DNA of 64,000 bases from Bradyrhizobium sp. LLZ17 (GTDB lineage: Bacteria; Pseudomonadota; Alphaproteobacteria; Rhizobiales; Xanthobacteraceae). Of the stretch, positions 35,858-51,553 are shown in pieces. Numbering within the stretch: the first letter of the stretch is position 1; each line of letters starts with the position of its first letter. The DNA lies in NCBI RefSeq assembly GCF_041200145.1, contig NZ_CP165734.1, forward strand, positions 1,426,001-1,490,000. The letters run 5' to 3'. Under the pieces are notes generated by a model, which ran no database searches, was not told the DNA's origin, and saw nothing but the letters and a program-made list of their open reading frames with translations. A program made the translations under genes and the position numbers.

Positions 35858-35932
35858 GCTCCCTTCGTCTATCGGTTAGGACGCCACCCTTTCACGGTGG
35901 AGAGAGCGGTTCGATTCCGCTAGGGAGCGCCA
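35858..35932 (+). tRNA. tRNA-Glu (anticodon TTC)
   Basis: A 75-nt gene. Acceptor arms GCTCCCT and AGGGAGC, anticodon stem CCACC/GGTGG around CTTTCAC (anticodon TTC), T arm GGTTCGATTCC, and encoded CCA. Its 3' 45 bp are repeated at 51509-51553; it is the integration site of the 15.6-kb island. Confidence 0.97.
35888..35932 (+). repeat. attL: 3' end of tRNA-Glu
   Basis: A 45-bp sequence from the anticodon arm to the CCA end, identical to 51509-51553. It marks the left edge of the island. Confidence 0.95.
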
Positions 35933-36111
35933 ACGATATCAGCCAGTTAGCGCCCTACTCCGCTGCCGTGTCCAACACATGGCCAATAAACGCGTATGGA
36001 CTACTCGCAGACGGCGGGACCGTGGGCAGCGCAATAACCGGCAATTAATGGATATGGAACTATTTTACACGTAAGTTCTTTCGTTCTGAATGGCCGCCAG
36101 GAGGCTAACAG

Positions 36112-36285
36112 ATGACGGATGCAGAGCTAACTCTTCAGGCTGTCAGTGACGCGCAGCGCATTCTCGAGGAGTACTTAGAACCGAGGCCCCGAAATAACGA
36201 GCGCATCATCTTGGACAGGCTGGTGGAAGTGCTCGAGCGGCCAGACCTTCTTGTCGCCGTTCATCGGATGCAGCGCGGCTCGTAG
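36112..36285 (+). CDS. Small hypothetical protein (island)
   Basis: 57 aa: MTDAELTLQAVSDAQRILEE, YLEPRPRNNERIILDRLVEV, LERPDLLVAVHRMQRGS. Two amphipathic helices. A GGAGG ribosome site lies 8 nt before the ATG. Its 3' end overlaps the tail of the opposite-strand gene (36206-36445). It resembles small rhizobial proteins of unknown role. Confidence 0.6.
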   Translation: MTDAELTLQAVSDAQRILEEYLEPRPRNNERIILDRLVEVLERPDLLVAVHRMQRGS

Positions 36286-36445
36286 GATCCCCGTTGTCGG
36301 GCCCTTGCTGATCGGCTCGTGCTAATTTGAGCCAGTCCTCAGCAAGTTTGAGCCACAGCTCCGCATCGATCGAGCAACGGGCTTCGGCGGCCCTTTCTCT
36401 GCACACCTCAGCGAACTGGTAGAAGCGTAGTACATTTTCCGACAT
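36206..36445 (-). CDS. Small helical hypothetical protein (island)
   Basis: A 79-aa protein: MSENVLRFYQFAEVCRERAA, EARCSIDAELWLKLAEDWLK, LARADQQGPDNGDPTSRA. The FAEVCRERAAEAR...AEDWLKLA pattern is common to many short Bradyrhizobium proteins. The start at MSENV is preferred; frames upstream contain an unrelated Gly/Arg stretch. Its C-terminal third overlaps the opposite gene, so the real 3' end may be earlier. Confidence 0.55.
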   Translation of the reverse strand: MSENVLRFYQFAEVCRERAAEARCSIDAELWLKLAEDWLKLARADQQGPDNGDPTSRAASDERRQEGLAARALPPACPR

Positions 36446-36638
36446 AGCAATCGACGCGAATACGCCCATCAACCCGCCTTTACCGTACTCGCCTCTCCTC
36501 GACACTGTCTGTCGATTACCTCACACACCGAACATTGGCCGCGCGATAATCTCGAAGTGTGCCAAATAGGCAACCCAGCGGCCGCAGCGTGAACCGGCGG
36601 GTGTGGCTCGGTGAAGCGACTTGGATTAGCCTCGGACG

Positions 36639-36875
36639 ATGCATCTATCATTGGAATTACCCCACTGGCTGATGATCGCAGGCGCCTTGCTACTGGTCAT
36701 CGGCATTATTGGCGCACTCGTCAGCCGAAAGAAGGTGGACGAGGCAGGTACGACGCCGGAAGAACCAATCGAGGCGCCAAAAACGAAGATGCCGCCCCTC
36801 CCAAAGCTCCTCGACTCCAGTGGAAGAACGCCGCCTAAGACCGATGCACACGAAGAAAACGGCCCGCCAGCGTGA
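36639..36875 (+). CDS. Small single-pass membrane protein (island)
   Basis: A 78-aa protein: MHLSLELPHWLMIAGALLLV, then a lysine boundary (VSRKKVDEAG) and a Pro/Glu/Lys-rich cytoplasmic tail (EEPIEAPKTKMPPLPKLLDS). A hairpin (36861-36887) overlaps its stop region. Function unknown. Confidence 0.6.
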   Translation: MHLSLELPHWLMIAGALLLVIGIIGALVSRKKVDEAGTTPEEPIEAPKTKMPPLPKLLDSSGRTPPKTDAHEENGPPA

Positions 36876-36887
36876 AACCGGCGGGCT
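36861..36887 (+). terminator. Hairpin GCCCGCC...GGCGGGC, repeated in the island
   Basis: GCCCGCC and GGCGGGC enclose AGCGTGAAACC. The 16-bp GGCCCGCCAGCGTGAA is repeated exactly at 37093-37108 and partly near 36583-36600. There is no T-tract, so it may be a processing or transposition-type repeat rather than a classical terminator. Confidence 0.5.
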
Positions 36888-36971
36888 GAATGAAACCATT
36901 CACTGCGATGCACGAAGCAGTCTGGAAACGATCCGGGAGTAGCTTTCCCTCATTAACGACGGGATTTCCAA

Positions 36972-37085
36972 ATGATCGCGCTTCAATTGATGGCAGTGGT
37001 GCTTGGTGGCGGCATTCTCTTTTCAATGTACTCGGGCGATCTAGGCGCCGACGTGGTCCTCGCCATCGTCGCTTGCCTGTCGTAA
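36972..37085 (+). CDS. Very small membrane protein (island)
   Basis: 37 aa: MIALQLMAVVLGGGILFSMY, SGDLGADVVLAIVACLS. Mostly hydrophobic, one or two helices. Located between two copies of the 16-bp repeat. Function unknown. Confidence 0.45.
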   Translation: MIALQLMAVVLGGGILFSMYSGDLGADVVLAIVACLS

Positions 37086-37579
37086 GCGAGAAGGCCCGCC
37101 AGCGTGAACGGGCGCCCCTTGCGCCAAATCACGCAATGCCACTCAGCGACTCTCCAAGCCCGTCAGAAATGCTGTCCGGTTGCCCGGTGTATTCAGCGGT
37201 GGTTCAATCTGGCGCCGGTTGTCTCCCCAATGACGGCAGGCAAAGGGCGGCCCCGATGCTTTGATCCCTTCCGCGATCGGGGCCGTTCTCATGCGCACCC
37301 CATCAGATCCTTTGGTCATGGCGCTCCCCACTTTGAAGGCGGAGGCGCAGTCGCGTCTCCCAGTCACCGGCACCGGCCCAAGGGTCTGGAACGGTGATAG
37401 CTCGGGAATGCAGCGTAAGCAGCAGCGTTCCTATTTCGGTGCTAAAGCGTAATTCCGGCTACGGCGGAACACAACTTAGCAAGGCCGCAATTCACCTAAG
37501 CTAGTGCGCAAATGTTGGATTTCTGAGATCACGGGTAGTGCCCGCCGCATAGCGTACTTCCTTCGTCAACACGCTCGCG
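37086..37579. other. Intergenic stretch in the island
   Basis: No convincing gene. It holds the second copy of the 16-bp repeat (37093-37108) and a GC-rich hairpin (37249-37284, GGCCCCGAT...ATCGGGGCC). Confidence 0.5.
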
Positions 37580-37783
37580 TTACTTCGGCGGCTGCAATCC
37601 CGTTGACTTCAGCCAATCAGTCATGTGCGCGCCAGTGTTAGCTTGTCGGGCCTTCCTAAGAAGAGCCTCGCGTTCTGCGCCTGCCGGTAGCGCGCTGGCC
37701 TGCTCTTTGAACCTTGCGGCTAGATCGGCCAATCGTTCCTCAAGAGATCGGGTTTGCTTCAGCTCGCGACGGTGCTCCGCCAT
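37580..37783 (-). CDS. Small hypothetical protein (island), paralogue of 28715-28915
   Basis: A 67-aa protein: MAEHRRELKQTRSLEERLAD, then LAARFKEQASALPAGAEREA, then LLRKARQANTGAHMTDWLKS, ending GLQPPK. Shares the end pattern with the protein at 28715. The island copy probably came from, or gave rise to, a chromosomal one. Function unknown. Confidence 0.65.
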   Translation of the reverse strand: MAEHRRELKQTRSLEERLADLAARFKEQASALPAGAEREALLRKARQANTGAHMTDWLKSTGLQPPK

Positions 37784-37921
37784 GGTGCTTTCCTCAGCCG
37801 TTGGGAAAATTCGAAACGCACAAAAGGTAAGTTCAGTTCCAGCTCATGGAACGAACTTGCGCCGGGTCTGTGCGCGGCGCGCGCCGGGAGCTGGCGCGAT
37901 TTGATTCTTCGTGCGGCAATG

Positions 37922-37958
37922 AAAACGGCCCCAGCTACTGGCGGCGGCTGGGGCCGTG
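37922..37958. terminator. GC-rich hairpin
   Basis: ACGGCCCCAGC and GCTGGGGCCGT form a perfect 11-bp stem. Equivalent ACGGCCCC/GGGGCCGT hairpins occur at 39298-39341 and 42086-42106 in the same island. No T-tract follows on the + strand. Confidence 0.5.
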
Positions 37959-38073
37959 GGGATCACTCCGACACCGCAGGGGGGACTTGAGAGTCGGAGC
38001 GTAGGTCAATGACGTGTATCGCCCCATTGTTCCTAAGACTCGTATAGTTATCTTAAATCCCTATGTTTCGCCC

Positions 38074-38664
38074 ATGCGTATGACCTACGAGCTCTGCCTG
38101 GCGACCGCCGGCAAGCAGGTCCCATCGGGACCGGACTGGATCCACGAGGTAAAGCACGACGGCTACCGGATGCTGGTAATCCGGGAGAACGAGCGCGTGC
38201 GGCTGCTTTCCAGGAACGGCACCGATTGGACCAAGCGCTATCCATGGATTGCCGAGGCCGCTCTGAAGAACCGGCAGACCCATTTTGTGATCGACGGCGA
38301 GGCTGTGATTTTGGGGATCGACGGCCTCTCCGATTTCAACGCGCTGCACTCCCGTAAGCACGACCACGAGGTGCAGCTTTATGCGTTCGACGTGCTGGCA
38401 CTGGGCAGTGACGATTTTCGCGACCTGCCGCTGCACCTCCGAAAGACAAACTTGCAACGCCTGTTAGCGCGCCGGCCGGACGGGATCACCGTGGCGCCGT
38501 TCGAGCGGGGCGAGATCGGCCCCGATCTGTACCGCGCCGCCTGCCGCATGGGCCTGGAGGGGTTGGTCTCGAAGCACCGCGACCGGCCTTACCGCGGGGG
38601 CCGACAGAAGCATTGGGTCAAGGTGAAGAATAGGCAACACCCCGCCATGAATCGCGAACTGTAG
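38074..38664 (+). CDS. ATP-dependent DNA ligase-like adenylation domain (no OB fold)
   Basis: A 196-aa protein containing only the nucleotidyltransferase domain. Motif I is EVKHDGYR with the adenylated Lys (near residue 27). HFVIDGEAVIL is motif III-like, VQLYAFDVLA follows, EGLVSKHRD is motif IV and HWVKVKN is motif V. A C-terminal OB-fold domain, needed by complete ligases, is absent: the frame stops 10 residues after motif V. Related short ligD-like proteins occur in rhizobia. It could act on nicked DNA with a partner or be a truncated remnant. Confidence 0.85.
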   Translation: MRMTYELCLATAGKQVPSGPDWIHEVKHDGYRMLVIRENERVRLLSRNGTDWTKRYPWIAEAALKNRQTHFVIDGEAVILGIDGLSDFNALHSRKHDHEVQLYAFDVLALGSDDFRDLPLHLRKTNLQRLLARRPDGITVAPFERGEIGPDLYRAACRMGLEGLVSKHRDRPYRGGRQKHWVKVKNRQHPAMNREL

Positions 38665-38722
38665 CCGCCCGCCCTCTTTAACTTCCTCGCGAATCAGATT
38701 TGTATGGTCAGAGGCGGAGGGG

Positions 38723-38929
38723 GTGGACATGAAGTTCATTTTCACGGAAGCTGGCGGCAATAAGCCGGTTCGGAAGTGCGATCTTTGCTTACAGCCGATG
38801 AGGTTTTTGGGCGAACATGCGAGATCTTGGCTGTTCAGGTGCGAGGCTTGCGCGCTTGTCAGCACAGCCAACATTCAACCTCTGCAAGCCAGCTTGGAAC
38901 GATCTCCTCGCTCGCCGCATGCTATCTGA
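38723..38929 (+). CDS. Zinc-ribbon miniprotein (island)
   Basis: A 68-aa protein: MDMKFIFTEAGGNKPVRKCD-LC, then SWLFRCEACALV. The two CxxC knuckles (CDLC and CEAC) form a zinc ribbon. The C-terminal 15 residues look less conserved. Related to the zinc-ribbon proteins at 42272 and the fragment at 26237. Function unknown. Confidence 0.6.
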   Translation: MDMKFIFTEAGGNKPVRKCDLCLQPMRFLGEHARSWLFRCEACALVSTANIQPLQASLERSPRSPHAI

Positions 38930-39359
38930 CGGTTCGCCGCGCGAGGCGTGGCATTTAAGTCTCAGGTCGTCGGCTTCGCGCAGGAATGACGTCAGGCGAT
39001 GTTGCCTAGTCTAACCGCCCGCTGTTAGCTGCAGCGGCCGAGCATCCATTGGCCTTGGGGTTGCAGGAAGACCATGGCGCCCGGCCGCCTGGTCGCAGGC
39101 GGCTGCGACCAGGCACCATATAACCGCGAGTCGCTAAAAGATCTCGCCTTCTTCCTAGAGTGACACATTAAATTCTGCAAAACGAAGCCGGCCTCGCGGA
39201 GTGGTAAGCGCGCGCCGCGATAAGCTGCCGGAGGCCTGCTGTGGGGAACGGCGTGCTCACTGCGCCGTTGGCTGAGTCGCTGGCCCAAGCTGGCGGAACG
39301 GCCCCGGTCAGTACCGTCCATCCCTTCGAAGCCGGGGCCGTCTCTCCCTGTTCCGGAGT
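38930..39359. other. Intergenic stretch in the island
   Basis: No convincing gene. It contains a long GC-rich hairpin (39298-39341). Confidence 0.45.
39298..39341. terminator. GC-rich hairpin
   Basis: ACGGCCCCGG and CCGGGGCCGT form a 10-bp stem around a 24-nt loop. It resembles the 37922 hairpin. Confidence 0.5.
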
Positions 39360-39769
39360 ATGCGTATGCGTTCGTCGCCCTCGATCGTGCCGCTCGACCG
39401 CCTCGATCGCGATGTCTATCTCGTCTTGGAAGATTTCGGCGCGCGCGCGGCTGCGCCTGGCGGGAGACGGACGAGCAGGACACCGACTTCGAGACGGTCA
39501 TCCGCGATCTGCTGTCGGGCCAATACGCCTATCCGGTCCGCATCGTCGCCTTCAATGCCATCGAGGGTTGGTCTCGCGATGCGACCAGCGAGGTCGCGGA
39601 CGAGCTGGCCGAGCGCCACGTGGGCGACGACGAGATCGCGCCGGCGCTGCGTGCCTTCATAGAAGCGAATGCCAGCCGACCGTTTGCCATCCAACTGGCG
39701 CTGCCACTGCGTGGACCCCTTGACCATGGCGCATCTGACACCCGCCGAGAGGATCGAGCAGAGCTATGA
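39360..39769 (+). pseudogene. Hypothetical protein, frameshifted
   Basis: The first frame gives MRMRSSPSIVPLDRLDRDVY-LVLEDFGARA. The continuation in the next frame (AWRETDEQDTDFETVIRDLL, AYPVRIVAFNAIEGWSRDAT, SEVADELAERHVGDDEIAPA) matches a common rhizobial hypothetical family with the VYLVLEDFG...AWRETDE...GWSRD order. One base is missing in a GCGCGCGCGGC run near 39440-39455. The 3' end overlaps the start of the next gene. Confidence 0.65.
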
Positions 39770-40073
39770 CCTCGCCATGATAGCGCTGGCCGATTATCTC
39801 ACGCGCGAGCGCGATGCAGCAGCAACGGTCGACCGGCTGATCCGCATTCTCGACCGCGACAGTCTCCGCGAGGCAATTACGGAGGTCCTCGTCCATGCTC
39901 GCGTCCATCCTAGGTCGAAATCGGATCCCGGCGCGACCATAACTGTTTGGATTTACCACCAGGAGGAGGACCTGAAGGTGTTCGCCAATGAGCAAGCCGC
40001 GCGCGCCTGGATGGACGAAAACGATCCGGAGGGCGTCGCGTTTGAGTACGAGGTGGTAGGCTCGCCGGCGTGA
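39726..40073 (+). CDS. Hypothetical protein (island)
   Basis: A 115-aa protein: MAHLTPAERIEQSYDLAMIA, a central helix (AATVDRLIRILDRDSLREAI), then ATITVWIYHQEEDLKVFANE and ENDPEGVAFEYEVVGSPA. It overlaps the preceding gene by 44 nt. The C-terminal EDLKVFANEQAARAWMDEND part resembles a small alpha/beta unit. Function unknown. Confidence 0.65.
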   Translation: MAHLTPAERIEQSYDLAMIALADYLTRERDAAATVDRLIRILDRDSLREAITEVLVHARVHPRSKSDPGATITVWIYHQEEDLKVFANEQAARAWMDENDPEGVAFEYEVVGSPA

Positions 40074-40104
40074 TCCGTGACATAGAAAGCGGCCGCCGCT
40101 GAGC

Positions 40105-40317
40105 GTGCCGTCCTATCCACAGCGGCTTGGTGCGCCAGTCTTCGAATGGCGTTGGCGGCGTTTCTTGGTCTCAGTCCCCCTTGGGCTAGGCGGAGTGTCA
40201 GCCACACTGATCATGATTGCTGGCGCGGTGGTATCTCGCATCGTCTGGATTAAGTATGATGATCCGGAAACGAACCGCCGGGAGCTGGAAGATCGCGTCC
40301 GGAATTGGTTTCCCTAA
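40105..40317 (+). CDS. Small single-pass membrane protein (island)
   Basis: A 70-aa frame with GTG start: RRFLVSVPLGLGGVSATLIM, AGAVVSRIVWIKY then DDPETNRRELEDRVRNWFP. One helix and an acidic-basic tail. No family recognised. Confidence 0.5.
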   Translation: MPSYPQRLGAPVFEWRWRRFLVSVPLGLGGVSATLIMIAGAVVSRIVWIKYDDPETNRRELEDRVRNWFP

Positions 40318-40375
40318 CCGCAGCCTCCGTCGATTGCACGTTTCAAAAGAAGCCTTCGCGTGGACCGCATCCGCA

Positions 40376-40585
40376 TCATCGGCCACGAAGCGGTCCAGTC
40401 AGTGGCCCCTCATTCGACTTTGGCTTGTCGCCGCGGGCCGGGGTGATGAACACCCAGCTGAACGCGGGCGCCGGGAATTTCGCTTGCAAGAGACGCACCG
40501 CCTCGGCTGCGGAATCCGCAGTTACACGTTCTCGGATAAGCCTCCGATCGGCCGTTCTCTGAAAGCCCACTATGAAGGTTGGCAA
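40376..40585 (-). CDS. Small hypothetical protein (start TTG, island)
   Basis: A 69-aa alpha/beta protein: MPTFIVGFQRTADRRLIRER, VTADSAAEAVRLLQAKFPAP, FSWVFITPARGDK. A TTG start at 40585 is preceded by AGGAG. The longer ATG frame upstream adds an arginine-rich, unlikely N-terminus. Function unknown. Confidence 0.5.
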   Translation of the reverse strand: MPTFIVGFQRTADRRLIRERVTADSAAEAVRLLQAKFPAPAFSWVFITPARGDKPKSNEGPLTGPLRGR

Positions 40586-40966
40586 GAGGCATCGTCTCCT
40601 GAGATACCTCTTGGACAGCATGCGTCGTGCCAGCGTTTTTTGTGCCGGACTGAGACGAGTTCCGGCGGACGCCCAGCAGGCTAGGGCCATCGAGTTGACC
40701 GCCGCGAAGGCGTCCAAACTGGACTTGCCGCGGGCTGAGCACGACGGGCTGGACAGGTCGCAGTAGCGTTCGCCCCGCAATCGAATGCCACGGCGACCGC
40801 CGAGATGGTCCTATTCAGAATTAGGGACACTTTGATTTGTGACAGTTGAATTCGGGCGCATGCTGGTTTAGCGCCCGCTAACGGCTACGGACTGGCACTC
40901 CCCTTGCTCTGCAATGCCCAATCCATCAGACTCAAGGTGGGCCTGTTTCATATTGAGGCGAAGCCG

Positions 40967-41308
40967 ATGCAAGCGATGCCCCGTTTCGAAGCGACCGTCC
41001 AGCTCCATGCGTTGATCTCCGACCTGCTACGGCGCGTTCAACTTCTCAATGCCGACATCGAGGAGGAGGAACGCAAGTCTCGTGTCTTCGACCCTGCTAA
41101 CCAGTCTTACTCGAGGCTGGCTCTAACAATGCGAGAACGTCGCGACAACCTGCAGACGACCGTCGCTACCTTGGAAAAGCAACTGGAGACCGATCCTCGG
41201 AGATCTCCGCCCGAGGCCATTGCCGTTTACCGTGCGTCGCGACGGCCGCGATTCCGGATAACTAACGTGCGTAATGCTGTCCTACGATACTCGGAAAATC
41301 AGAGGTAA
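40967..41308 (+). CDS. Coiled-coil hypothetical protein (island)
   Basis: A 113-aa protein: MQAMPRFEATVQLHALISDL, LRRVQLLNADIEEEERKSRV and RLALTMRERRDNLQTTVATL form long amphipathic helices. The C-terminus (YRASRRPRFRITNVRNAVLR) is basic. The start at MQAM (40967) or MPRF is preferred over an upstream ATG. Function unknown. Confidence 0.65.
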   Translation: MQAMPRFEATVQLHALISDLLRRVQLLNADIEEEERKSRVFDPANQSYSRLALTMRERRDNLQTTVATLEKQLETDPRRSPPEAIAVYRASRRPRFRITNVRNAVLRYSENQR

Positions 41309-41462
41309 GCCCACTGCACGGATCGCTTCAGCGCTGTTCTGGGCGCATGTTTAATTCCTGGTCCGTTTGAAAGCCTCACGGTCCGGCCGCCTCGGCCTCA
41401 GCTTCCACCCCCGTCGAAGTTGGGGCCGATTTTCGCCCTTGGCTGGTTGCGGCACTCCGCGC

Positions 41463-41753
41463 CTAACGCAGATACCGCGCTGGCCTGTTCGCGTGGTTCA
41501 TTTCCTCAAAGGCCTTCGCCAGCTCTTCTGGCCGATGCTTCGCCTTGAAGCTCTCCCAGGCGACCTTGAAGCGCCCTTTCGCTTCGTCGAGCGAACCAGC
41601 GTCCCCAAAAGGCGGTCCGGGAAGTGTCACGATGCACGTCCACAGCCACAGCCCGGGGGAGCATTCGCTGGCGTAGCGGATGCGCCCGACTAGCTGCCGG
41701 TCCTCGTGGACCGTGTAATCATCGAGGCCGATCATCCGTAGGGTCAGGGGCAT
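41463..41753 (-). CDS. Hypothetical protein (island)
   Basis: A 96-aa protein: MPLTLRMIGLDDYTVHEDRQ, LVGRIRYASECSPGLWLWTC, IVTLPGPPFGDAGSLDEAKG, RFKVAWESFKAKHRPEELAK. This is a common small rhizobial protein with a strand-rich first half (VGRIR-A-E--PG-W-W) and a C-terminal helix. Function unknown. Confidence 0.7.
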   Translation of the reverse strand: MPLTLRMIGLDDYTVHEDRQLVGRIRYASECSPGLWLWTCIVTLPGPPFGDAGSLDEAKGRFKVAWESFKAKHRPEELAKAFEEMNHANRPARYLR

Positions 41754-42271
41754 TGTGGCCTGCCGTTGGCTAGGACCAAATAATCGCCGGCTGCTCGAAT
41801 GGTCCCTATCCACAGGAGCGCGGCTGCTTCGAACTGCACGCGAGCGGCACACCTGAGTGGCGGAGGATCACACCATCGTCTTGAGCGCCATAACTTAGAT
41901 CATTTTTCCGCAAGCTGTCGCCATCCCGTGCCCGCACTGGCGATGTTCAATCTTGAGGAGGCTGGCACTTCTATCCAAATGGTTGTGCCGGAAAACTAAG
42001 AGCCCCAGCCGGGAGGCCCCCCGGGTTGGGGCCTTTCTTGTGATGTTGCCAAGTGTTCGGCTGAGACGGCGACCTCGAAACTTAAACGGCCCCACGTGGG
42101 GGCCGTCAACCCGCTGATCGGGTTTTCCTCCAGCAGCCGGGGGGCGACCTGTCTGGCTGGGGGCCTCGGAGAGACGCGGTGCGAAGCAGATTGTTCCACT
42201 TACGTTTGATTGCGGAAGCCCCAAGCCCGGCCCGTCTCTCCGCCCGGAGATCGTCGGCCGGAAGGTACGCC
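41754..42271. other. Intergenic stretch with terminator-like hairpins
   Basis: No gene seen. Three hairpins follow each other: 42001-42037 (GCCCCAGCC...GGTTGGGGC), 42086-42106 (ACGGCCCC/GGGGCCGT) and 42108-42124 (AACCCG CTGAT CGGGTT then TT). Confidence 0.5.
42086..42124 (+). terminator. Tandem terminator-like hairpins
   Basis: ACGGCCCC(ACGTG)GGGGCCGT followed directly by AACCCG(CTGAT)CGGGTTTT. The second has a short T-tract. Confidence 0.5.
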
Positions 42272-42442
42272 TCAGTCGTCCCAGGACCGCTTGCCGCACG
42301 CACATTCGAACATGTGAGTGATGCCTCCGCTGTCAGAGTCCACCACCGTTCGTACAAGCTTCATTTTGTTGCCGCAGGTCCGGCAGGACCTGCTTGAGTT
42401 GTCCTCGACAACGCAAATCTTCTCAGCGCGAAATATTTCCAT
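42272..42442 (-). CDS. Zinc-ribbon miniprotein (island)
   Basis: A 56-aa protein: MEIFRAEKICVVEDNSSRSC-RTCGNKMKL with CRTC, then ITHMFECACGKRSWDD with CAC. It binds zinc in all likelihood; partners unknown. A start at 42442 is preferred. Similar in plan to 38723. Confidence 0.6.
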   Translation of the reverse strand: MEIFRAEKICVVEDNSSRSCRTCGNKMKLVRTVVDSDSGGITHMFECACGKRSWDD

Positions 42443-42593
42443 GACTCTCGTCCCCCGTCCCCAGGTGACAAAGTGGGGCATATAACAAGCCTGTAAAATG
42501 GAGGAAGTGGGTACGAAGCGCGACTAATTTGCGACCGTACACGGAGCAAACCGAGATGCGCCAGCTATCCTGCCGTCCGTTTTGGGTACCCCA

Positions 42594-42839
42594 TTAGGGT
42601 GCCCCGAGTAACGGAACGGAGCGATCCCCGCCGATCCTCTCAGTGCTTGGGCTGATGTAATCCCGGTGCAAAACGGTTGGTCGGTTGGCACCATCGAACA
42701 GGACGGTAATGCCGGTGGTACGAGCGCTGACCGCGACAACGACGCCGACCTTGCGGGCGAGATCTGGGCAACGGGTTATTCCGAACTTGCTGAGCTTGAA
42801 ACGCGCGCCGACCACCATCCAGTCCATTCTAACATTCAT
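42594..42839 (-). CDS. Small hypothetical protein (island)
   Basis: An 81-aa protein: WMVVGARFKLSKFGITRCPD, LARKVGVVVAVSARTTGITV, LFDGANRPTVLHRDYISP. A small beta-barrel-like composition (SH3-like spacing of V/G strands). This type occurs in rhizobial islands. The last 17 residues are less certain. Confidence 0.65.
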   Translation of the reverse strand: MNVRMDWMVVGARFKLSKFGITRCPDLARKVGVVVAVSARTTGITVLFDGANRPTVLHRDYISPSTERIGGDRSVPLLGAP

Positions 42840-43559
42840 CTTGCGCCCCCTAAGATACAGATCGCAACTGGAACGGTGGGGCCGAGTAGCAAAGTTGTAC
42901 GACGCATATTTCGCTTGTGTTTAGGTTCCCGCACTCACCTATGTGAAGGGAAACGCGGACACGTCGGCGCTTCCGACCCACTGCCTCAGCGCGCGCCTCC
43001 CTGCTATGAACCTGCCGCGGGCTTGCTTGCGGAATAAGATCGCACTTCCGCTAATTGCGCCCCGACAAAAGCTCCAGCCGTGGTCACGCAGGCGGTAAAC
43101 CCGATGCCGGGACGCGCTTTGCCTCGCACCTCCGATAGCTACGATTTGTGGCCTTGATCCAGAACTTTTGCCGGCGGCCCCGGCTCCAGCGGACAGGCGA
43201 ATGCCTTCGAGCGCACGATCTGATCAAATCTGACAAGCAGCGAGCGGCCTGACATTTTTTTCACATTCTAACTTACCGCGAAGCGCTACAGAGTCGTGGC
43301 GCGGGTCGCTGCCACGGTGACTCTCATGATTGGCATCTTAGTCTAGCGTCCTAAGAGGTCCAATATGCTAGCAATATATCGAACCCTTCGGTGGCTGGGC
43401 TTTTCACGCTGGAGGGCCACGCGAACACTTTTGAAAATCTACTGTGTGACTTTCCAATCGCGAATGTTCTAGACAATGCAGCGGCGTGGGCGCTCTTCCC
43501 CAAAGCGTTGGCGACCTCGGCGCCGCCGCACTGGCAGCATGATCGCGGAAGACATCTGA
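42840..43559. other. Gene-poor stretch between island halves
   Basis: About 720 bp with no convincing gene on either strand; frames present do not look like protein. It separates the leftward phage-like operon (right) from the cargo (left). It may hold the remains of deleted genes or an unrecognised RNA. Confidence 0.5.
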
Positions 43560-43760
43560 TTAGCATCGATCCGAAGGGTTCGTTTCTCCGTCGCGAGAGA
43601 CGAGCCTTAGGAACAGCTTGCCGGCGAGCTCCGCTTGCTCCGTCATGGCAAGGTCGCTGAGCTTCTTCAGTTCCTCATGCGAGGCGCCCATCGCGCGTGC
43701 GTCGAGGAAGCGCCGGAGCGCGGGAGGTGCATCTAGAATGCGGTGCATAATGTGGTTCAT
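43560..43760 (-). CDS. Small hypothetical protein, end of the phage-like operon
   Basis: A 66-aa helical protein: MNHIMHRILDAPPALRRFLD, ARAMGASHEELKKLSDLAMT, EQAELAGKLFLRLVSRDGET. It starts with a 4-nt ATGA overlap to the gene before it. No family recognised. Confidence 0.6.
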   Translation of the reverse strand: MNHIMHRILDAPPALRRFLDARAMGASHEELKKLSDLAMTEQAELAGKLFLRLVSRDGETNPSDRC

Positions 43761-43936
43761 CTGCCAGCCATCTTCAGAATTTCAGTCAGCTGCGCGATCG
43801 CGCGCGTGTGCTGGTCGATCAGCGCTTCCGCGCGCTGGATCTCTGCCTTTCCGTTCGCGAGCCCGCCTTGGGCTGCGATCAGCCCCGTCTCCTGGATCTG
43901 GATCGCGTTACGAATAATCTCGCGCGCTTCATTCAC
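43757..43936 (-). CDS. Small coiled-coil protein (start GTG)
   Basis: A 59-aa protein with GTG start: MNEAREIIRNAIQIQETGLI, AAQGGLANGKAEIQRAEALI, DQHTRAIAQLTEILKMAGR. One continuous amphipathic helix. Translationally coupled to the next gene by ATGA. It follows the prohead protease gene, a position that in tailed phages belongs to capsid or head-joining genes. Confidence 0.65.
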   Translation of the reverse strand: MNEAREIIRNAIQIQETGLIAAQGGLANGKAEIQRAEALIDQHTRAIAQLTEILKMAGR

Positions 43937-44035: not shown

Positions 44036-45241
44036 TCATTTCGAGTACGCCATCCGACGAATCTTTGCGGCTTCGGCTAGGCGCTGCTCGCGAGTTGGGG
44101 TGGGATCGTCGACGATGCGCGCGCTGATCGCACGCGCCCGGGCCACGAGTTCTCGCGCCTCACGGCGTCTGTCCAACATTTTGGTTTCGCCCAGTCGCAC
44201 CTCGAGAGAATCCACCAGGGCTCGCGCCACACTGATAACATTGCCGGGCATGTCGGATTTTTCGAGAGCCGCAAAGCTCTGGCGCCAGCCCGTTTTCGAG
44301 GCGACGATGGTCCCGCCTGCGACCTTGCAAAATGGAAACTGATAGCTATCGGCCTTAAATGCCGCAGACGCATTGGAGGCAAAGAAAAAGTGTTTGGCGT
44401 CCTCGGTGATCGTCCCGTTCGGGGAGAATTGCGCAAGCAAAGCGGCCTTTGCTGAGGCAGCGTTATAGGGATCATCGGTCGAATCGATCGGCATCGTACC
44501 GATCGCCTGGCATACCCAGTCGCTCGGCTCTCCGCCCGGCAAGGGGTAGTCATCGAGCGGAGCATTGCGAACGCGGCCGGATGATTTTGCGCCGGCTGCT
44601 GGACCGACCAGTAGGCAGTTCGGATTGGCCGGCACGGGGCACAGGCTGAATTCAGTCAAGATGTGGCCCGACAGAAAATCGATTCCCCCGGGCCGCTGCG
44701 GGTCCTTGGTGAACTGAAAACTGCCTGGCACGAAGCCCACGCTGCAACCACGCAGGACACCCGCAGCGACCATGCTGCGAACTTGATCCGAAACAGCCGA
44801 AACGCCTTGAGGCGGAAAGTTAACGTTTGCCATCAGTGACGGGCCGCTGCTCGTCCATGGCGTCGAGGATTGTCCGACCGGCATCGAGCTGCTGTCATGG
44901 CAAAACAGGACAGGTCCATTCTTCGCGAAGTTCGCGAGCCGCCATCCGCCGACCTTGATGACGTCGTTCATCAAATCTGGCGTCTCGTCACTAATTCTGA
45001 ATTGCCACGAAAGCGCGGTACTATCCATGGCGCGCAGCACGGGCGCAGACGCGGGCACCCGGATTGCCGGTTCGGCTTGCTTCATTTCGAAGGCGTCAAT
45101 AAGCGCTCGCTCAGAGAATTCCCAGATGCCATGCCGGAGTTGAGCGATATGCTTTGCGTTCCACAAAACGCGATTTCCCCCGACCATTCCCTTAAGTCGA
45201 TGGGCAAGCGCTGACTCGCGCAATGTATCTAGATTGTTCAT
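44036..45241 (-). CDS. HK97-family prohead protease (U35-like serine protease)
   Basis: A 401-aa protein. Residues about 75-215 show the prohead protease core: DLMNDVIKVGGWRLANFAKN, the catalytic His in LFCHDSSSMPVG (H115), MVAAGVLRGCSVGFVPGSF with the nucleophile Ser167, and HILTEFSLCPVPANPNCLLV. A second domain (residues 220-400) has SYQFPFCKVAGGTIVASKTG and an Arg-rich helical tail. In HK97-type phages this enzyme trims scaffold and major capsid protein during maturation. Here no capsid gene follows. The start overlaps the preceding gene by 4 nt (ATGA). Confidence 0.85.
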   Translation of the reverse strand: MNNLDTLRESALAHRLKGMVGGNRVLWNAKHIAQLRHGIWEFSERALIDAFEMKQAEPAIRVPASAPVLRAMDSTALSWQFRISDETPDLMNDVIKVGGWRLANFAKNGPVLFCHDSSSMPVGQSSTPWTSSGPSLMANVNFPPQGVSAVSDQVRSMVAAGVLRGCSVGFVPGSFQFTKDPQRPGGIDFLSGHILTEFSLCPVPANPNCLLVGPAAGAKSSGRVRNAPLDDYPLPGGEPSDWVCQAIGTMPIDSTDDPYNAASAKAALLAQFSPNGTITEDAKHFFFASNASAAFKADSYQFPFCKVAGGTIVASKTGWRQSFAALEKSDMPGNVISVARALVDSLEVRLGETKMLDRRREARELVARARAISARIVDDPTPTREQRLAEAAKIRRMAYSK

Positions 45242-45834
45242 CGCGCCTTCGCCTTTTCGATTTCGGCGGAACTGACTATGCCGGCAGCAATGAGGCGCTC
45301 CACGCACCAGTTCACTTCCTCATCATACGTCTCGCCAACGCCAAGTAATTCACGACCATCGGTCGGCAGGCTTCCACCGCCGCCGGCTGAACGGATGTTC
45401 TCACGCAACTGTTCTCGCTGGCGATTGATGCGCTGTAGATCCAGGGCCGCCATGATGCGCCGACGCTCAATCTCGGCGATCTCGCTAGAAAATGAGGCGA
45501 AGATTCTGTCGCCACGCTCGACGAGAAGATGCTCTCGCGCAACACGGCCGATCTCGAACGCGCGCCGATAGACAGCGCGCTTTTTACATACGATCTCCAA
45601 CTGCGAAATTGAGTTCGCGGTTGGATCGTAGTCGGTACCATCGAGCAACGCTCTGGCTGCGTCTGTAAGGCGCGAGGCCGTGCCGCCCCCGCTGCTCTCT
45701 TCGAGAGACAACTGGACTTCAAATAAGGCCTGGTCATCGGACTCGATCTTCGCGATTTTGCGGTCGAGCGCCGCGAGCGGGGCATCCTCGTAGTCGACGA
45801 GAGAAGCGGTTTTCTTTCGGAGGGCGGCAATCAT
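45238..45834 (-). CDS. Coiled-coil protein preceding the prohead protease
   Basis: A 198-aa protein: MIAALRKKTASLVDYEDAPL, ALDRKIAKIESDDQALFEVQ, EIAEIERRRIMAALDLQRIN, RQREQLRENIRSAGGGGSLP. Long helical segments with heptad character and a C-terminal EVNWCVERLIAAGIVSSAEI unit. Coupled to the protease by ATGA overlap. A role as scaffold or adapter is conceivable but unsupported. Confidence 0.7.
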   Translation of the reverse strand: MIAALRKKTASLVDYEDAPLAALDRKIAKIESDDQALFEVQLSLEESSGGGTASRLTDAARALLDGTDYDPTANSISQLEIVCKKRAVYRRAFEIGRVAREHLLVERGDRIFASFSSEIAEIERRRIMAALDLQRINRQREQLRENIRSAGGGGSLPTDGRELLGVGETYDEEVNWCVERLIAAGIVSSAEIEKAKAR

Positions 45835-45911: not shown

Positions 45912-46319
45912 TCAACGCCCGCGGTGGCCCTCGATGACATTCAAGATTTGCCGCCAAGACAGCGATGCGCCGACGGAGAAAAACGCGATCTTAAACAAAA
46001 GGCGGCGCCGTTCGCCTGATCCTTCGGGCGGACCACCATCACGTTCCCGAAGCCACGCCCCGGACAGATACCGTGAGAGATCCACGGCGATGGCTTTAGC
46101 CGAGCCGCTCGGCGTCCCATCGTAAAGAGCAGAAATATCCCGCACGGCCTGATCTCGGTCGTTGAGCCTACGTCCCCGTATTGGCGGCGCCGATGCCAAT
46201 GCTCGCTCAATCACTTCCCTATCTTCTGGTTTCAGCCTGTCCAGAACTGCCTGGACTGCACCGGCTCGGCAGGCTGAGCTTGAGCTCAGGTCAGCGAGGC
46301 TGCTCTTATCGAGGGGCAT
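45912..46319 (-). CDS. Hypothetical protein in the phage-like operon
   Basis: A 135-aa protein: MPLDKSSLADLSSSSACRAG, LKPEDREVIERALASAPPIR, GRRLNDRDQAVRDISALYDG, RRLLFKIAFFSVGASLSWRQ. Its first half (a short helical unit then LKPEDREVIERAL) is similar in plan to small phage proteins that recognise DNA, but no family is assigned. An in-frame TTG at 46337 could extend it. A 150-bp A/T-rich gap separates it from the next upstream gene. Confidence 0.6.
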   Translation of the reverse strand: MPLDKSSLADLSSSSACRAGAVQAVLDRLKPEDREVIERALASAPPIRGRRLNDRDQAVRDISALYDGTPSGSAKAIAVDLSRYLSGAWLRERDGGPPEGSGERRRLLFKIAFFSVGASLSWRQILNVIEGHRGR

Positions 46320-46400
46320 TAGATTGGATTTTTTCAACTTGATTTATTGTTCAACAAAATCAGTTATATGACCCAACAATAGCGATGGGTCGGTCTTGAT
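46320..46400 (-). promoter_or_regulatory. A/T-rich candidate promoter/operator
   Basis: The only clearly A/T-rich gap in the leftward operon. It contains the perfect short palindrome TTGTT-C-AACAA (46347-46357) and the tract GGTCATATAACTG. It would drive the 45912 gene and the protease block separately from the upstream genes. Hexamers are not clear enough to place a start site. Confidence 0.4.
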
Positions 46401-46489: not shown

Positions 46490-46882
46490 TCATCGAAGTG
46501 GCTGCTCGCGCTCTGGCCATTTCACACCCGGCGGAGGACCGGCATCGAACAGCGAGGCGAAAAATTGCGGATGCCTCCACTTCACCGAGTCCAAACCAGC
46601 TACCGTCGCCTGGACAAGCGTGAGATCGATGGGCGGGCGGGCCGTCCTTTCGTCCACTGCGATCTGATACACGGCCTCCAACTTTGCCGCAGCGAGCAGC
46701 CTGGCTTCGGGCGGCCAGTGCGCATCCCCGGCTATCTCAAAAAGTCGATCGATGTCGCGCTGGTCAAAAACATTGTCGATCGCACGCCGCACGAGGTCGA
46801 GACGGTCAGGGGATTGCAGATCGTGCAGCCCGACACCGCGATAGGTCGCGACGACCGGAATTGTGTCTCTGCGGTCATGCAT
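46490..46882 (-). CDS. Hypothetical protein in the phage-like operon
   Basis: A 130-aa protein: MHDRRDTIPVVATYRGVGLH, DLVRRAIDNVFDQRDIDRLF, WPPEARLLAAAKLEAVYQIA, DLTLVQATVAGLDSVKWRHP. All-helical, no family recognised. It overlaps the preceding basic protein's end by 8 nt, so it is coupled to it. Confidence 0.6.
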   Translation of the reverse strand: MHDRRDTIPVVATYRGVGLHDLQSPDRLDLVRRAIDNVFDQRDIDRLFEIAGDAHWPPEARLLAAAKLEAVYQIAVDERTARPPIDLTLVQATVAGLDSVKWRHPQFFASLFDAGPPPGVKWPEREQPLR

Positions 46883-47147: not shown

Positions 47148-47183
47148 AGTGGTTTTCTCCGTTAGGTGATTTTCTGGGAATTT

Positions 47184-47324: not shown

Positions 47325-47407
47325 TGGACTGGCAACCTGGTTTCCCGCCCTGCTTGGCGCCAGCGGAAATCCCCCTAACACTGCTCACAACGCTCACAGT
47401 CGCGCTC

Positions 47408-49125: not shown

Positions 49126-49347
49126 TTACGCAACCTCCTTGCGGCCAGCGGCGCCCTCGCACGAGCGGCGCCAATCCGCGGCTGCCTCAAGGGAAATCAA
49201 CGTCCGAGAACCAACCGACATGGTTTTCGGAGCTTTTCCCTCCGAGCGCAACTTGTAGAACATGGCTCGCGAAATGGCATGAGTCGAGCAAAACTCGTCG
49301 ACTGAATAGCAGGCCTTGCCAGTTACATTGCCTTGGATGGTATCCAT
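49126..49347 (-). CDS. AlpA-like helix-turn-helix regulator/excisionase
   Basis: A 73-aa protein: MDTIQGNVTGKACYSVDEFC, STHAISRAMFYKLRSEGKAP, KTMSVGSRTLISLEAAADWR. This is the MerR/AlpA-like winged HTH pattern (SVDEFC--H-ISRAMFYKL--EGKAP) found next to integrases in P4-like islands, where it controls integrase expression or excision. The start at 49347 is preferred over an upstream ATG. Confidence 0.85.
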   Translation of the reverse strand: MDTIQGNVTGKACYSVDEFCSTHAISRAMFYKLRSEGKAPKTMSVGSRTLISLEAAADWRRSCEGAAGRKEVA

Positions 49348-49432
49348 TCTCGATCTGTCCAGCATTGGTTTCGATGGACAGATAAAGACAACGACAGCCA
49401 CTCAGGAAAAAGACACGAGTTGTGATGGCTCG

Positions 49433-50113
49433 TTATCCGCTTTTCGTGGTATTTAGTTTCGTCTTTCGACCACGGCGAGGTAGCGCCGCGTCCAAGAATT
49501 TCATTCCGGAAAGAGCGCTCTTTAGCCGCGACTCGTCCGGTACAGGGGTTATTCTGGCCGAACGAAAGGTCTCCTTGATGAGCTTCGCGAATAGGCCGGA
49601 CCTCGAATAGCTGGGGGTCACTTTGAAAGAATCAGCGTAGCCGCGCGCGATATCGCGGACCAGACCGTCGATTCTAACCGTCATGCCGCCGCCTTCAATC
49701 AATGCTGAGGCGGCCCCTGAAATAAGCCGCAGCCTCTTAACATCCTTGTCAAGGTCGTCGAGACTGATTGCTTCCTCGCGGAGCCGGCCGGCGTTCTTTG
49801 AGAGCCAAATCTTCTGGACTAGAACAGAGGCCGTTATTCGATCAAGCGCGCCCAAATCTCGAGCCAGTGCAGTTGCGGCCTTCTCAATCGAACGGGCCAG
49901 TTTTATGCCCCTCTGATCAGACGGGACGGCCCCGGTATAGAATCGATGTTCCCCTATGGCCTCGTCGACAGCGCGGACAAATTGATCTTGCTGTGAGCTG
50001 TCCCCTAGATCGCGAGCAATTTCAAATACACGCCTCCGAAGTGCTTCGGCCTCCTGGGGCGAAAGACCAATTAACATTGCGGCGACCGGTTCGCGGGGAG
50101 GATCATTACTCAT
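49433..50113 (-). CDS. Hypothetical protein between integrase and AlpA-like regulator
   Basis: A 226-aa, mostly helical protein: MSNDPPREPVAAMLIGLSPQ, ALRRRVFEIARDLGDSSQQD, ALARDLGALDRITASVLVQK, with a basic C-terminus (LPRRGRKTKLNTTKSG). It starts in a 4-nt ATGA overlap with the integrase gene. No family recognised; a partner in recombination is possible but unproven. Confidence 0.65.
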   Translation of the reverse strand: MSNDPPREPVAAMLIGLSPQEAEALRRRVFEIARDLGDSSQQDQFVRAVDEAIGEHRFYTGAVPSDQRGIKLARSIEKAATALARDLGALDRITASVLVQKIWLSKNAGRLREEAISLDDLDKDVKRLRLISGAASALIEGGGMTVRIDGLVRDIARGYADSFKVTPSYSRSGLFAKLIKETFRSARITPVPDESRLKSALSGMKFLDAALPRRGRKTKLNTTKSG

Positions 50114-51351
50114 TGGAACCTTGGCCCCCCGCTTCGAATGGCATCGGCCACGAAAGATGGCGCAAGATGACCATAGTGCTTTTCAACCATCCGCGTCGTC
50201 GAGTGGCCGAGGTTTTTGGCGACGACCATTAGCGGCACGCCGTTCATTACGGCATGACTCGCCCAGGTATGGCGAAGGACGTGGAAATTCGCGGCCTTGA
50301 TCTTTGCCAGCTCGCAGGCTTCCGCGATCGGATCTTTCTGATGATCGCGCACCCATGGCTGATCATCGTCTTTCACGAACATGGGCGCGTCGCCTAGTCG
50401 CCCCTTCGTGATTGATGCAAAGAAAGCCGCGCCCTCCTCGGTCAGGACGATGTGCCTCGGCTTGTCACTCTTGGACTGGCGGACGGCAATGGTCCCGCTG
50501 TCTGCGTTGAAATCTTGCACGGTGAGCGCGCACAATTCGCCATATCGCCCCCCTGTTTCCAAGGCACCGCGCACCAGCCGCTGGAAAGCAGGCAAGCTCG
50601 CCGCTAATAACAGCTTCACTTCATCAAGTGTGAGATACCGAACCCGCGCCGAATCTACGCCATGGAACGGCTTAACACGACGCCATGCTGCATCAGACGG
50701 GATGCTTTTGGGGTGGTCATGCGCGGTAAGATTAAGAGCGGCCTTCAATATCGTGAGTATCCGGTTCGCGGACGACTTTCGGCGACGCTCATTTTCGGGA
50801 TCATCGATGGACTTGAATTGCTGTTTCTCGCCCTTCTTTGTACGGACACGCGCTGGCGACTTGGCAAGCTTTGAGATCCATGCGCGGACCTGTTCCGGCA
50901 CCAAAGCGTTGATCTCGACCGCACCTAACGTTGGTAGAATGAAGGCATCGGCGGCATAGCGTGCCTCGCGCCCCGAGCGGCTTCGCTTCGATTCCAGATA
51001 CGTGACGTAGGCCTCGATCGCATCCTTGACAGTAAGGGGCTTGGTCTTGCCGACCGCGGCATGGGCGCGAGCGACCATGCGCGTTCGTGCCAGCGTCTGA
51101 GCTTGGGGGAAACTGAGAATTGCAACGCCGTCCGGGTCGGAAAAATCATCAGCGATAGCGATGGTCTCGACCTCATAGGCCTGACCACCAAGGTAGTGCC
51201 GCGCCAGCCACTTGCCGGCGCCGCTGAGCGGCTTTCGGTAGCCGAGGTGTAATCCCGGCTCCAACCCTCGCCAGTACGGCTTGCCGCGCGCCTTGAGCCG
51301 GCTGCGCGCGGTGCGCGTGTCCAATAAGGCATCCCTGATTGTGCGCGCCAT
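50110..51351 (-). CDS. Tyrosine recombinase (phage-type integrase)
   Basis: A 413-aa phage-type integrase. The N-terminal arm-binding region includes KARGKPYWRGLEPGLHLGYR, a SAM-like core-binding domain spans about residues 107-235, and the catalytic domain follows. The catalytic residues are Arg269 (GGRYGELCALTV), the HVLRHTWASHAV box (H357, R360), His383 (LGHSTTRMVE) and the nucleophile Tyr393 (EKHYGHL). Adjacent to the att repeat it explains insertion at tRNA-Glu. It reads inward and overlaps the next gene. Confidence 0.95.
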   Translation of the reverse strand: MARTIRDALLDTRTARSRLKARGKPYWRGLEPGLHLGYRKPLSGAGKWLARHYLGGQAYEVETIAIADDFSDPDGVAILSFPQAQTLARTRMVARAHAAVGKTKPLTVKDAIEAYVTYLESKRSRSGREARYAADAFILPTLGAVEINALVPEQVRAWISKLAKSPARVRTKKGEKQQFKSIDDPENERRRKSSANRILTILKAALNLTAHDHPKSIPSDAAWRRVKPFHGVDSARVRYLTLDEVKLLLAASLPAFQRLVRGALETGGRYGELCALTVQDFNADSGTIAVRQSKSDKPRHIVLTEEGAAFFASITKGRLGDAPMFVKDDDQPWVRDHQKDPIAEACELAKIKAANFHVLRHTWASHAVMNGVPLMVVAKNLGHSTTRMVEKHYGHLAPSFVADAIRSGGPRFQ

Positions 51352-51508
51352 AGCATCTTTCCCACGGTGGCAAACTGCATCGTGTCCAACATGTGTCTAA
51401 TATCTTTGAGTGGACGTCAATGGACAGGCATGCCCGCTTATGGCCTAACTATCTGATTATTTTCATTATGTTCAAACGAGTGTGGACAGCGGTGAACGCC
51501 GTATCCTT

Positions 51509-51553
51509 CCTTTCACGGTGGAGAGAGCGGTTCGATTCCGCTAGGGAGCGCCA
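51509..51553 (+). repeat. attR: duplicate of tRNA-Glu 3' end
   Basis: Identical to 35888-35932 over 45 bp. It marks the right edge of the island, about 160 bp beyond the integrase start. Confidence 0.95.

What the first reader, a model, noticed from the sequence alone, without database searches (positions are those of the whole stretch)
35858..51553. 15.6-kb element at tRNA-Glu with satellite-like gene order
A 45-bp exact duplication of the tRNA-Glu 3' end brackets int, an AlpA-like regulator, a RepA-like ATPase, unknown proteins and a prohead protease, all leftward and mostly with overlapping stop/start codons. Size and order (int, regulator, replication, one capsid-related function) fit phage satellites better than a complete prophage. 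No such element is familiar to me from Bradyrhizobium.
Basis: partly seen in the sequence, partly recalled or inferred. Interest (0 to 1): 0.8.

Follow-up and report, generated by a model that had tools for sequence, protein, structure and literature searches.

The report
Phage satellite with stand-alone head protease
A 15.6-kb DNA element inserted at a tRNA gene of a Bradyrhizobium-like bacterium carries a stand-alone gene resembling virus-head proteases plus a partner gene, where related elements carry a coat-protein gene, so it is likely a phage satellite predicted to take over a helper phage's head assembly.

Summary
In detail: an exact 45-bp copy of the tRNA-Glu 3' end brackets 15,621 bp, and a relative (G188) has the site empty. 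Inside, leftward: integrase, AlpA-like protein, RepA (AAA_25 ATPase), small unknowns, a 198-aa protein "g9" and a stand-alone S78-type prohead protease. No capsid, portal or terminase was recognised. The satellite reading is supported and extended. The element is a mosaic: integrase shared with other tRNA-Glu elements, RepA block with elements carrying a capsid gene, g9-protease with others again. Among 265 genus genomes the window's g9 finds three and a g9 profile five; each g9 overlaps a head gene (protease in two, HK97 capsid protein in three). Of ten att-bounded elements (10.5-23.6 kb), nine show none to two recognised head or tail genes and one a near-full head set like capsid-forming PICIs. 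I propose that g9 plus protease redirects a helper's head assembly or maturation; this is inferred and untested. Single-capsid-gene satellites have a precedent (SaPIbov5 Ccm); I saw none for a protease module, though key satellite papers were not available to me. New variant of a known kind.

The parts
35858..35932 (+). tRNA-Glu(ttc), attachment gene
   Evidence: ARAGORN; Rfam RF00005
35888..35932 (+). attachment core repeat, tRNA side (45 bp)
51509..51553 (+). attachment core repeat, integrase side (45 bp, 100% identical)
   Evidence: empty site in G188
35968..35977 (+). candidate integrase arm site GTGTCCAACA
   Evidence: only 2 copies in 64 kb, one just inside each element end; chance mean 0.01; function inferred
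51382..51391 (+). candidate integrase arm site GTGTCCAACA
   Evidence: function inferred
50110..51351 (-). tyrosine integrase (413 aa)
   Evidence: PF00589 1.3e-23; 60-64% identical to integrases of three att-bounded tRNA-Glu elements and 84% to that of G161:C1
49433..50113 (-). 226-aa unknown protein, overlaps int by 4 bp
   Evidence: no confident family
49126..49401 (-). AlpA-like small HTH regulator/excisionase (91 aa)
   Evidence: PF05930 E=0.016, phrog_2790 E=0.0097; 66% identical to the gene in the same place in G161:C1
48934..49125 (-). 63-aa unknown, conserved next to AlpA
   Evidence: 63% in G239, 66% in L160, 50% in G161:C1
48454..48744 (-). 96-aa unknown, overlaps RepA by 4 bp
   Evidence: 60% in G239, 66% in L160
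47408..48457 (-). RepA-like AAA_25 ATPase (349 aa), predicted replication gene
   Evidence: PF13481 1.9e-28; 89% G239, 83% L160
46875..47147 (-). 90-aa unknown
   Evidence: 86% in G239; phrog_15261 4.9e-5, unknown function
46490..46882 (-). 130-aa unknown (g7; longest frame 157 aa)
   Evidence: 41 proteins including itself; the nine with an organism name are all Bradyrhizobium
45912..46337 (-). 141-aa unknown (g8)
   Evidence: no confident family
45238..45834 (-). g9, 198-aa predicted-helical partner of the head gene (longest frame 239 aa)
   Evidence: found with its own sequence in 3 of 265 genus genomes, with a profile in 5, each time overlapping a head gene; 6 homologues besides itself
44036..45241 (-). 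stand-alone S78-type prohead protease (401 aa; longest frame 423 aa)
   Evidence: phrog_617 1.8e-18, phrog_80 7.9e-9; predicted viral prohead proteases in BFVD, best E 3e-14; 55 homologues besides itself
43757..43936 (-). 59-aa unknown, overlaps next gene
   Evidence: gene call only
43560..43760 (-). 66-aa unknown
   Evidence: weak homologue between protease and TerL in L091, E=4.5e-6
38014..38664 (+). ATP-dependent DNA ligase domain protein, likely cargo (start uncertain)
   Evidence: PF01068 1.2e-26
35933..43559 (.). distal variable region with short ORFs on both strands
   Evidence: its PHROG scan went through, which shows 25 of 38 matched families

Best explanation
The segment is a 15,621-bp element inserted at tRNA-Glu that is likely a phage satellite, and its g9 gene and stand-alone prohead-protease gene are predicted to take over the head assembly of a helper phage. 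Integration at the tRNA 3' end by the element's own integrase follows from the exact att repeats and the empty site in a relative. Induction through the AlpA-like protein and replication through RepA are inferred from known satellites. The central step is inferred: when a helper makes heads, g9 (predicted helical, found against a head gene wherever seen) would act as scaffold or assembly partner, and the satellite protease would act on the helper's procapsid in place of, or against, the helper's own protease. Heads would then be resized for the satellite or spoiled for the helper. Elements sharing its RepA block carry a capsid protein instead, so the slot behaves as an exchangeable helper-exploitation module.
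For: att repeats at the tRNA and empty site. A head gene with no capsid, portal or terminase recognised in the element and no PF05065 or PF04860 gene in the genome. g9: 3 of 3 genomes found with the window's sequence and 5 of 5 found with a profile have it overlapping a protease gene (2) or HK97 capsid gene (3). Closest protease relatives are stand-alone genes; H115, S167 and E197 are invariant in 39 of 39 aligned rows (38 of the 56 hits plus G231), so the gene is maintained. Modular exchange at DNA level: int and AlpA with G161:C1, RepA block with G239 and L160, g9-protease with L091 and G231. RepA of W, G239 and L160 form one group (99/100) although W has a protease and the others a capsid or capsid-like gene. 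The same RepA family (61-63% identical) occurs in capsid-forming-type contigs L163 and L165. Precedents: a satellite-coded capsid homologue redirecting assembly (SaPIbov5 Ccm, passages); scaffold joined to protease in phage P2 (passages).
Against: No helper, induction or packaged DNA is shown. No TerS or packaging site was recognised in the element. The g9 count is partly circular: four of the five genomes supplied rows of the profile (only G139 was new), and G239's g9 had been chosen by position, with weak similarity (HHalign probability 62). The g9 model is poor (pLDDT 67) and matches no solved structure, so 'scaffold' rests on position and predicted helicity. The left 7.5 kb has few recognisable genes. 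G239 carries a broken ClpP-type head protease, so decay occurs in this family.
Confidence: 0.6

Rival explanations
1. It is the decaying remnant of a capsid-forming satellite or prophage that has lost capsid, portal and terminase, and the protease is a leftover.
For: Contigs with the same RepA family have fuller head sets (L163, L165); G116 has a near-full set; G239 has a broken ClpP-type protease fragment; L091 has g9, protease and a terminase large subunit; the left 7.5 kb holds few recognisable genes.
Against: The g9-protease pair recurs with open frames in G231 and L091; by source record, homologues of both occur in Bradyrhizobium sp. 41S5, GM24.11 and B. erythrophlei, on contigs of equal length. 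Candidate catalytic residues are invariant in 39 of 39 rows. g9 stands against a capsid gene instead in G161, G239 and G139, not expected of leftovers.
Confidence: 0.2
2. It is a satellite or genomic island, but the protease serves as an anti-phage weapon: it cuts incoming phage head proteins too early and so protects host and element, without making particles for the element.
For: One head gene fits a poison of head assembly; no TerS found here; PICIs interfere with helper reproduction (PMC6092414, passages).
Against: Related elements carry a capsid protein or TerS, which fits particle hijacking better; G231 has both TerS and protease.
Confidence: 0.15
3. It makes its own heads: one of the unknown proteins is an unrecognised capsid protein and the protease matures it.
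For: Several unknown proteins; capsid-forming-type relatives exist.
Against: No PHROG or Pfam capsid hit shown for the scanned element proteins (one search shows 25 of 38 families); g9 is 198 aa and predicted all-helical, unlike the HK97 fold.
Confidence: 0.05

Closest known systems
Gram-negative PICIs (EcCICFT073 type, PMC6092414, passages)
   Same: int, AlpA-type regulator, own replication gene, about 15 kb, site-specific insertion
   Different: Carries an S78-type prohead protease with partner g9; replication gene is an AAA_25 RepA; no TerS recognised; regulator only weakly AlpA-like. PMC10803314 (passages) places PICIs in many Firmicutes and Gammaproteobacteria
Capsid-forming PICIs (cfPICI; PMC11389934 and PMC10803314, passages)
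   Same: Contigs with the same RepA family (L163, L165) and element G116 carry terminase, capsid, protease and portal in 10.7-18 kb
   Different: The window's element has only the protease of that set
SaPIbov5 with Ccm (PMC8569155, passages)
   Same: Satellite coding one helper-like head protein; related elements G212, G239, G139 and G161 carry an HK97 capsid protein
   Different: Here the head gene is a protease with a dedicated partner gene; no functional data
P4 with Sid, SaPI1 with CpmAB (PMC6893505, passages)
   Same: A small helical satellite protein linked to head assembly; g9 would be the analogue
   Different: Sequence relation to Sid or CpmB was not tested; the role of g9 is inferred

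Membership tests
phage satellite (general) | small integrative element lacking a full virion gene set | tested here: met
   15,621 bp, att-bounded; one head gene recognised (one search shows 25 of 38 families)
phage satellite (general) | packaged into helper particles | not testable with these tools
   no reads or particles; relatives of RepA and protease occur in IMG/VR contigs, which is no proof
PICI (criteria of PMC6092414, passages) | integrase, replication module and master regulator in conserved order | tested here: met
   int, AlpA-like, RepA; the regulator hit is weak
PICI (criteria of PMC6092414) | att site never occupied by prophages | tested here: inconclusive
   elements bounded at the same tRNA-Glu in G062, G060 and G161:C108 are 16-24 kb; prophages at this site were not surveyed
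[quoted passage not shown]
   prohead protease present; the same paper says some elements encode capsid morphogenesis genes, so I do not file it as a strict PICI
PICI (criteria of PMC6092414) | size typically around 12-15 kb | tested here: met
   15.6 kb, just above
PICI (criteria of PMC6092414) | phage-dependent induction and interference | not testable with these tools
   needs a helper phage
capsid-forming PICI | produces its own capsid (capsid gene and the genes around it) | tested here: not met
   no capsid, portal or terminase recognised in the element; no PF05065 or PF04860 in the genome
Ccm-type cos SaPI | capsid-protein homologue as the redirecting protein | tested here: not met
   a capsid gene is present in G212, G239, G139 and G161, not in the window
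P4-like satellite | Sid, Psu, alpha primase set (recalled) | not tested
   no dedicated search was run
complete prophage | capsid, portal, terminase, tail and lysis genes | tested here: not met

The most novel reading that the evidence does not exclude
Bradyrhizobium-type bacteria hold a family of plug-in satellites that exchange one helper-exploitation cassette between integration and replication modules. One version of the cassette is a scaffold-like protein (g9) with its own prohead protease, which would steer helper heads by proteolysis instead of by a coat or scaffold protein alone: a way of capsid piracy not yet described.
Probability: 0.4. Interest if true: 0.8.

Novelty: new variant of a known kind. 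Interest (0 to 1): 0.6.

Why it matters
Satellites are known to take heads through scaffold-like proteins (Sid, CpmB), a capsid homologue (Ccm), small terminases, or their own capsids. A protease-plus-partner version, and related elements in which a capsid protein stands behind the same kind of partner gene, would show how satellites change helper strategy by swapping one cassette. It also gives a natural series from near-full-head to single-head-gene elements within one RepA family, useful for asking whether satellites shrink from capsid-forming ancestors or gain head genes one by one. I saw no satellite described from Bradyrhizobium in my paper searches: searches gave 0 papers, one search listed 15 of 24, one search listed 15 of 606.

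Tried and rejected
Relatives in GTDB contigs: two scans, with the protease and its alignment, found nothing, so I used the genome search. Resident helper: no PF05065 or PF04860 in G000. Against a simple 'no helper' reading, phrog_2 (taken by me as terminase large subunit; the answer gives no name) matches 16 places in 6 of 9 genomes, three of them in G000 (best 2e-19), none inside the described elements; it also rings in 11 of 14 control genomes, so it settles little. phrog_1289 and phrog_53, searched to place two stray hits, fell on a 93-aa fragment in L119, on the G161:C108 gene, on a broken ClpP-type gene in G239, and on other places in all 10 genomes (and in 14 of 14 controls for phrog_53). 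Known phages: the protease matches 1 of 50,697 phage records (32% identity over 31%); RepA matches 11, none over 80% of its length. Plasmids: 2 records, covering 2% and 1%. Solved structures: no match for the protease profile, none at E <= 0.001 by fold for either model. The g9 alignment found nothing in IMG/VR. I rejected g9 as TerS because G231 carries a separate TerS (phrog_83) beside its g9. I dropped the first RepA tree, in which one row had been cut out of frame; one search replaces it. A protease-capsid fusion query intended for one search was not made (no such frame came out), so that the 713-806-aa genus frames are fusions is inferred from length. Not followed: L067-L071 (S78-like genes in frames of 262-406 aa in G066, G200, G092 twice, G160), and 8 of the 22 non-self RepA places. 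Two papers likely to bear on novelty were not available: VEIMEs (PMC9618062, not held) and tycheposons (known to me only from a reference list).
Full report
OBSERVATION. The tRNA-Glu gene (35858-35932) and a second exact copy of its last 45 bases (51509-51553) bracket 15,621 bp. G+C in 2-kb windows is 57-62% inside and 61-66% just outside, but a stretch of 52-55% lies at 30-34 kb, so composition is weak evidence. The relative G188 has the locus uninserted: the joined flanks align over 653 bp at 77%, through a single tRNA (first seen as 75% over query bases 5-405). In G062, G060 and G161:C108 the same tRNA-Glu carries other elements of 17,111, 16,121 and 23,611 bp with 44-46-bp repeats. A 10-mer, GTGTCCAACA, occurs only twice in the 64-kb window, once just inside each end (chance mean 0.01); I read these as candidate integrase arm sites.

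HOST. The tools name no organism for the window. The genus is taken as Bradyrhizobium because the contig length of its genus mate G239 equals that recorded for Bradyrhizobium sp. B097 and the organism-named homologues of the protease (four) and g7 (nine) are all Bradyrhizobium; this is an inference.

GENES. Leftward from the right end: integrase; a 226-aa unknown; an AlpA-like HTH (weak hits); 63- and 96-aa unknowns; RepA (AAA_25); 90-, 130/157- and 141-aa unknowns; g9; a prohead protease; two small ORFs. The left 7.5 kb holds short ORFs on both strands and a DNA-ligase gene. The protease matches positions 31-158 of phrog_617 ('major head protein', 626 positions; residues 104-233, 1.8e-18), the end that G231's protease also matches, while capsid genes match its other end; and phrog_80 (7.9e-9). 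Nothing capsid-like follows. The model has a confident core (residues 81-210, block means 92-97; overall mean 74) that matches predicted viral prohead proteases (BFVD, best E 3e-14). H115, S167 and E197 are invariant in all 39 rows of A1 (38 of the 56 hits plus G231); that they are the catalytic residues is inferred.

PROTEASE RELATIVES. A search of 5.8 billion proteins gave 56 hits including itself, 237-468 aa long; it admits only 0.55-1.75 times the query length, so longer proteins are excluded, and only the 7,996 candidates sharing most words were scored. In 265 genus genomes, 19 including the own one match. Thirteen matches lie in frames of 713-806 aa, likely fusions with a capsid protein (not tested), with E from 2e-21 to 2e-17. 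The best non-self hit, G231, is a stand-alone gene of 280 aa (frame 296 aa) with E = 6e-38.

G9 AND THE HEAD SLOT. The window's g9 searched in 265 genus genomes finds three, including itself: G000, G231 and (weakly, 3e-4) G161. In all three it overlaps a head gene: protease, protease, HK97 capsid. A ten-row profile finds five, adding G239 and G139, where it overlaps a 353-aa HK97 capsid gene (PF05065 1.2e-27 for G239; G139 capsid 88% identical). Four of the five had rows in the profile; G239's row was chosen by position and is weak on its own (HHalign probability 62), and G139 is the only new find. So 3 of 3 by sequence and 5 of 5 by profile, the latter partly circular. By source record, homologues of g9 and protease also occur in Bradyrhizobium sp. 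41S5 (locus tags ending 20590 g7, 20600 g9, 20605 protease), GM24.11 and B. erythrophlei, on contigs of equal length. The IMG/VR contig L091 (5.9 kb) has g9, protease, a weak homologue of the 66-aa gene, and a terminase large subunit. L161 has RepA, the G239-type g9 and a capsid gene.

MOSAIC STRUCTURE. DNA homology falls in separate blocks: 50138-51403 (int) and 49041-49320 (AlpA, 63-aa gene) with G161:C1; 47371-49068 and 46506-47240 (63-aa gene to g7) with G239; 47368-49139 with L160; 44586-45036 and 45218-45438 (protease, g9) with L091; 45239-45368 with G231. In the RepA tree W, G239 and L160 group together (99/100), though W carries a protease, G239 a capsid gene and L160 a 484-aa capsid-like gene (8e-13 to the capsid gene of L163). 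Several other forks in that tree are open.

ELEMENTS DELIMITED. Ten have exact att repeats at a tRNA gene: W (Glu, 15,621 bp, g9 + protease); G231 (Arg, 15,693, TerS + g9 + protease); G212 (Trp, 10,546, capsid); G053 (Arg, 16,939, TerS + tail collar); G139 (Lys, 16,899, g9 + capsid); G161:C107 (Val, 10,630, capsid and a 93-aa portal-end or tail-fibre-like fragment); G062 (Glu, 17,111, none assigned; a 165-aa protein hits a major-tail profile at 0.0015); G060 (Glu, 16,121, TerS-like 2e-5); G161:C108 (Glu, 23,611, ClpP-type head protease, phrog_53 6e-103); G116 (Tyr, 18,008, portal, S78 protease, capsid, and by pairwise match TerS and TerL). Limits: the bulk PHROG scans covered 85 proteins (W, G231, G212, G139, G239) and 93 of 130 listed candidates (G053, G161:C107, G062, G060, G161:C1, G141; the 24 of G161:C108 and 13 others left out), without integrases, replication genes and head genes already identified; they show 25 of 38 and 25 of 35 matched families, so weaker head genes could be missed. 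Two TerS-like members (phrog_2538) were not assigned. Of 22 non-self RepA places I fetched 14. Five showed a recognised head gene (G239, G212, G053, G141, G194); nine did not, against a limited local query set. Among six IMG/VR contigs with this RepA, L163 and L165, which look closely alike, have TerL, capsid, protease, portal and integrase beside tRNA-Ser in 10.7-10.8 kb, by pairwise matches (capsid only 1e-5).

HELPER. Of 11 genomes searched, including the own one, none has a PF04860 portal, and PF05065 matches four places in three genomes, all in elements described here (G161:C1, G161:C107, G239, G212). Other portal types were not searched apart from phrog_1289, and phrog_2 matches outside the elements in 6 of 9 genomes, so resident phages of other kinds are not excluded.

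MECHANISM. Shown: insertion site, gene order, module exchange, coupling of g9 to head genes, invariant protease residues. Inferred: mobility today, induction by AlpA, replication by RepA, scaffold-like role of g9, action on helper heads. Known analogues: SaPIbov5 Ccm, a capsid homologue that alone redirects helper assembly (PMC8569155, passages); scaffold joined to protease in phage P2, and the helical Sid and CpmB (PMC6893505, passages); cfPICIs that make their own capsids (PMC11389934, passages). PICI criteria are from PMC6092414 (passages); the strict criterion of no structural genes is not met here, so I file the element as a phage satellite of new variant, not as a member of the PICIs.

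LITERATURE. Two papers on Bradyrhizobium temperate phages (PMC10127595 and PMC11599138, passages) report prophages; neither describes such elements in what I saw. A review (PMC12949522, passages) says satellites are widespread in plant microbiomes, naming none from Bradyrhizobium in the passages seen. PMC10803314 (passages) places PICIs in many Firmicutes and Gammaproteobacteria and cf-PICIs mainly in other groups than rhizobia. Four searches used a protease term (the last listed 12 of 22 papers) and showed no protease-based satellite in the listings. The library lacks most subscription journals and the VEIME paper.

Noticed in passing
window 38014-38664: ATP-dependent DNA ligase gene in the distal part; ligase matches also lie in the fetched neighbourhoods of two other RepA genes, L055 (G161:C94) and L058 (G115).
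   Followed up: partly
L118 (G161:C1) 18020-19683: An array of ten tRNA genes directly beside the g9-capsid element of G161.
   Followed up: no
L053 about 10338-10805 (G239): Broken ClpP-type head maturation protease (one stop inside) downstream of the capsid gene.
   Followed up: no
L115:7929-9209 (G161:C108): Element at the same tRNA-Glu, with an integrase 60% identical to the window's, carries a ClpP-type instead of S78-type head maturation protease.
   Followed up: partly
L163 and L165 (IMG/VR): 10.7-10.8-kb contigs with RepA, TerL, capsid, protease, portal and integrase beside tRNA-Ser: likely compact capsid-forming satellites.
   Followed up: partly
A1, residues about 225-360 of P0001: The protease family has three forms at one place: no insert, a shared insert of about 130 aa, and an unrelated long insert in P0030 and P0041.
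   Followed up: no
window 34202-34290: 34-bp inverted repeat, 94% complementary with a 21-bp loop, outside the element.
   Followed up: no
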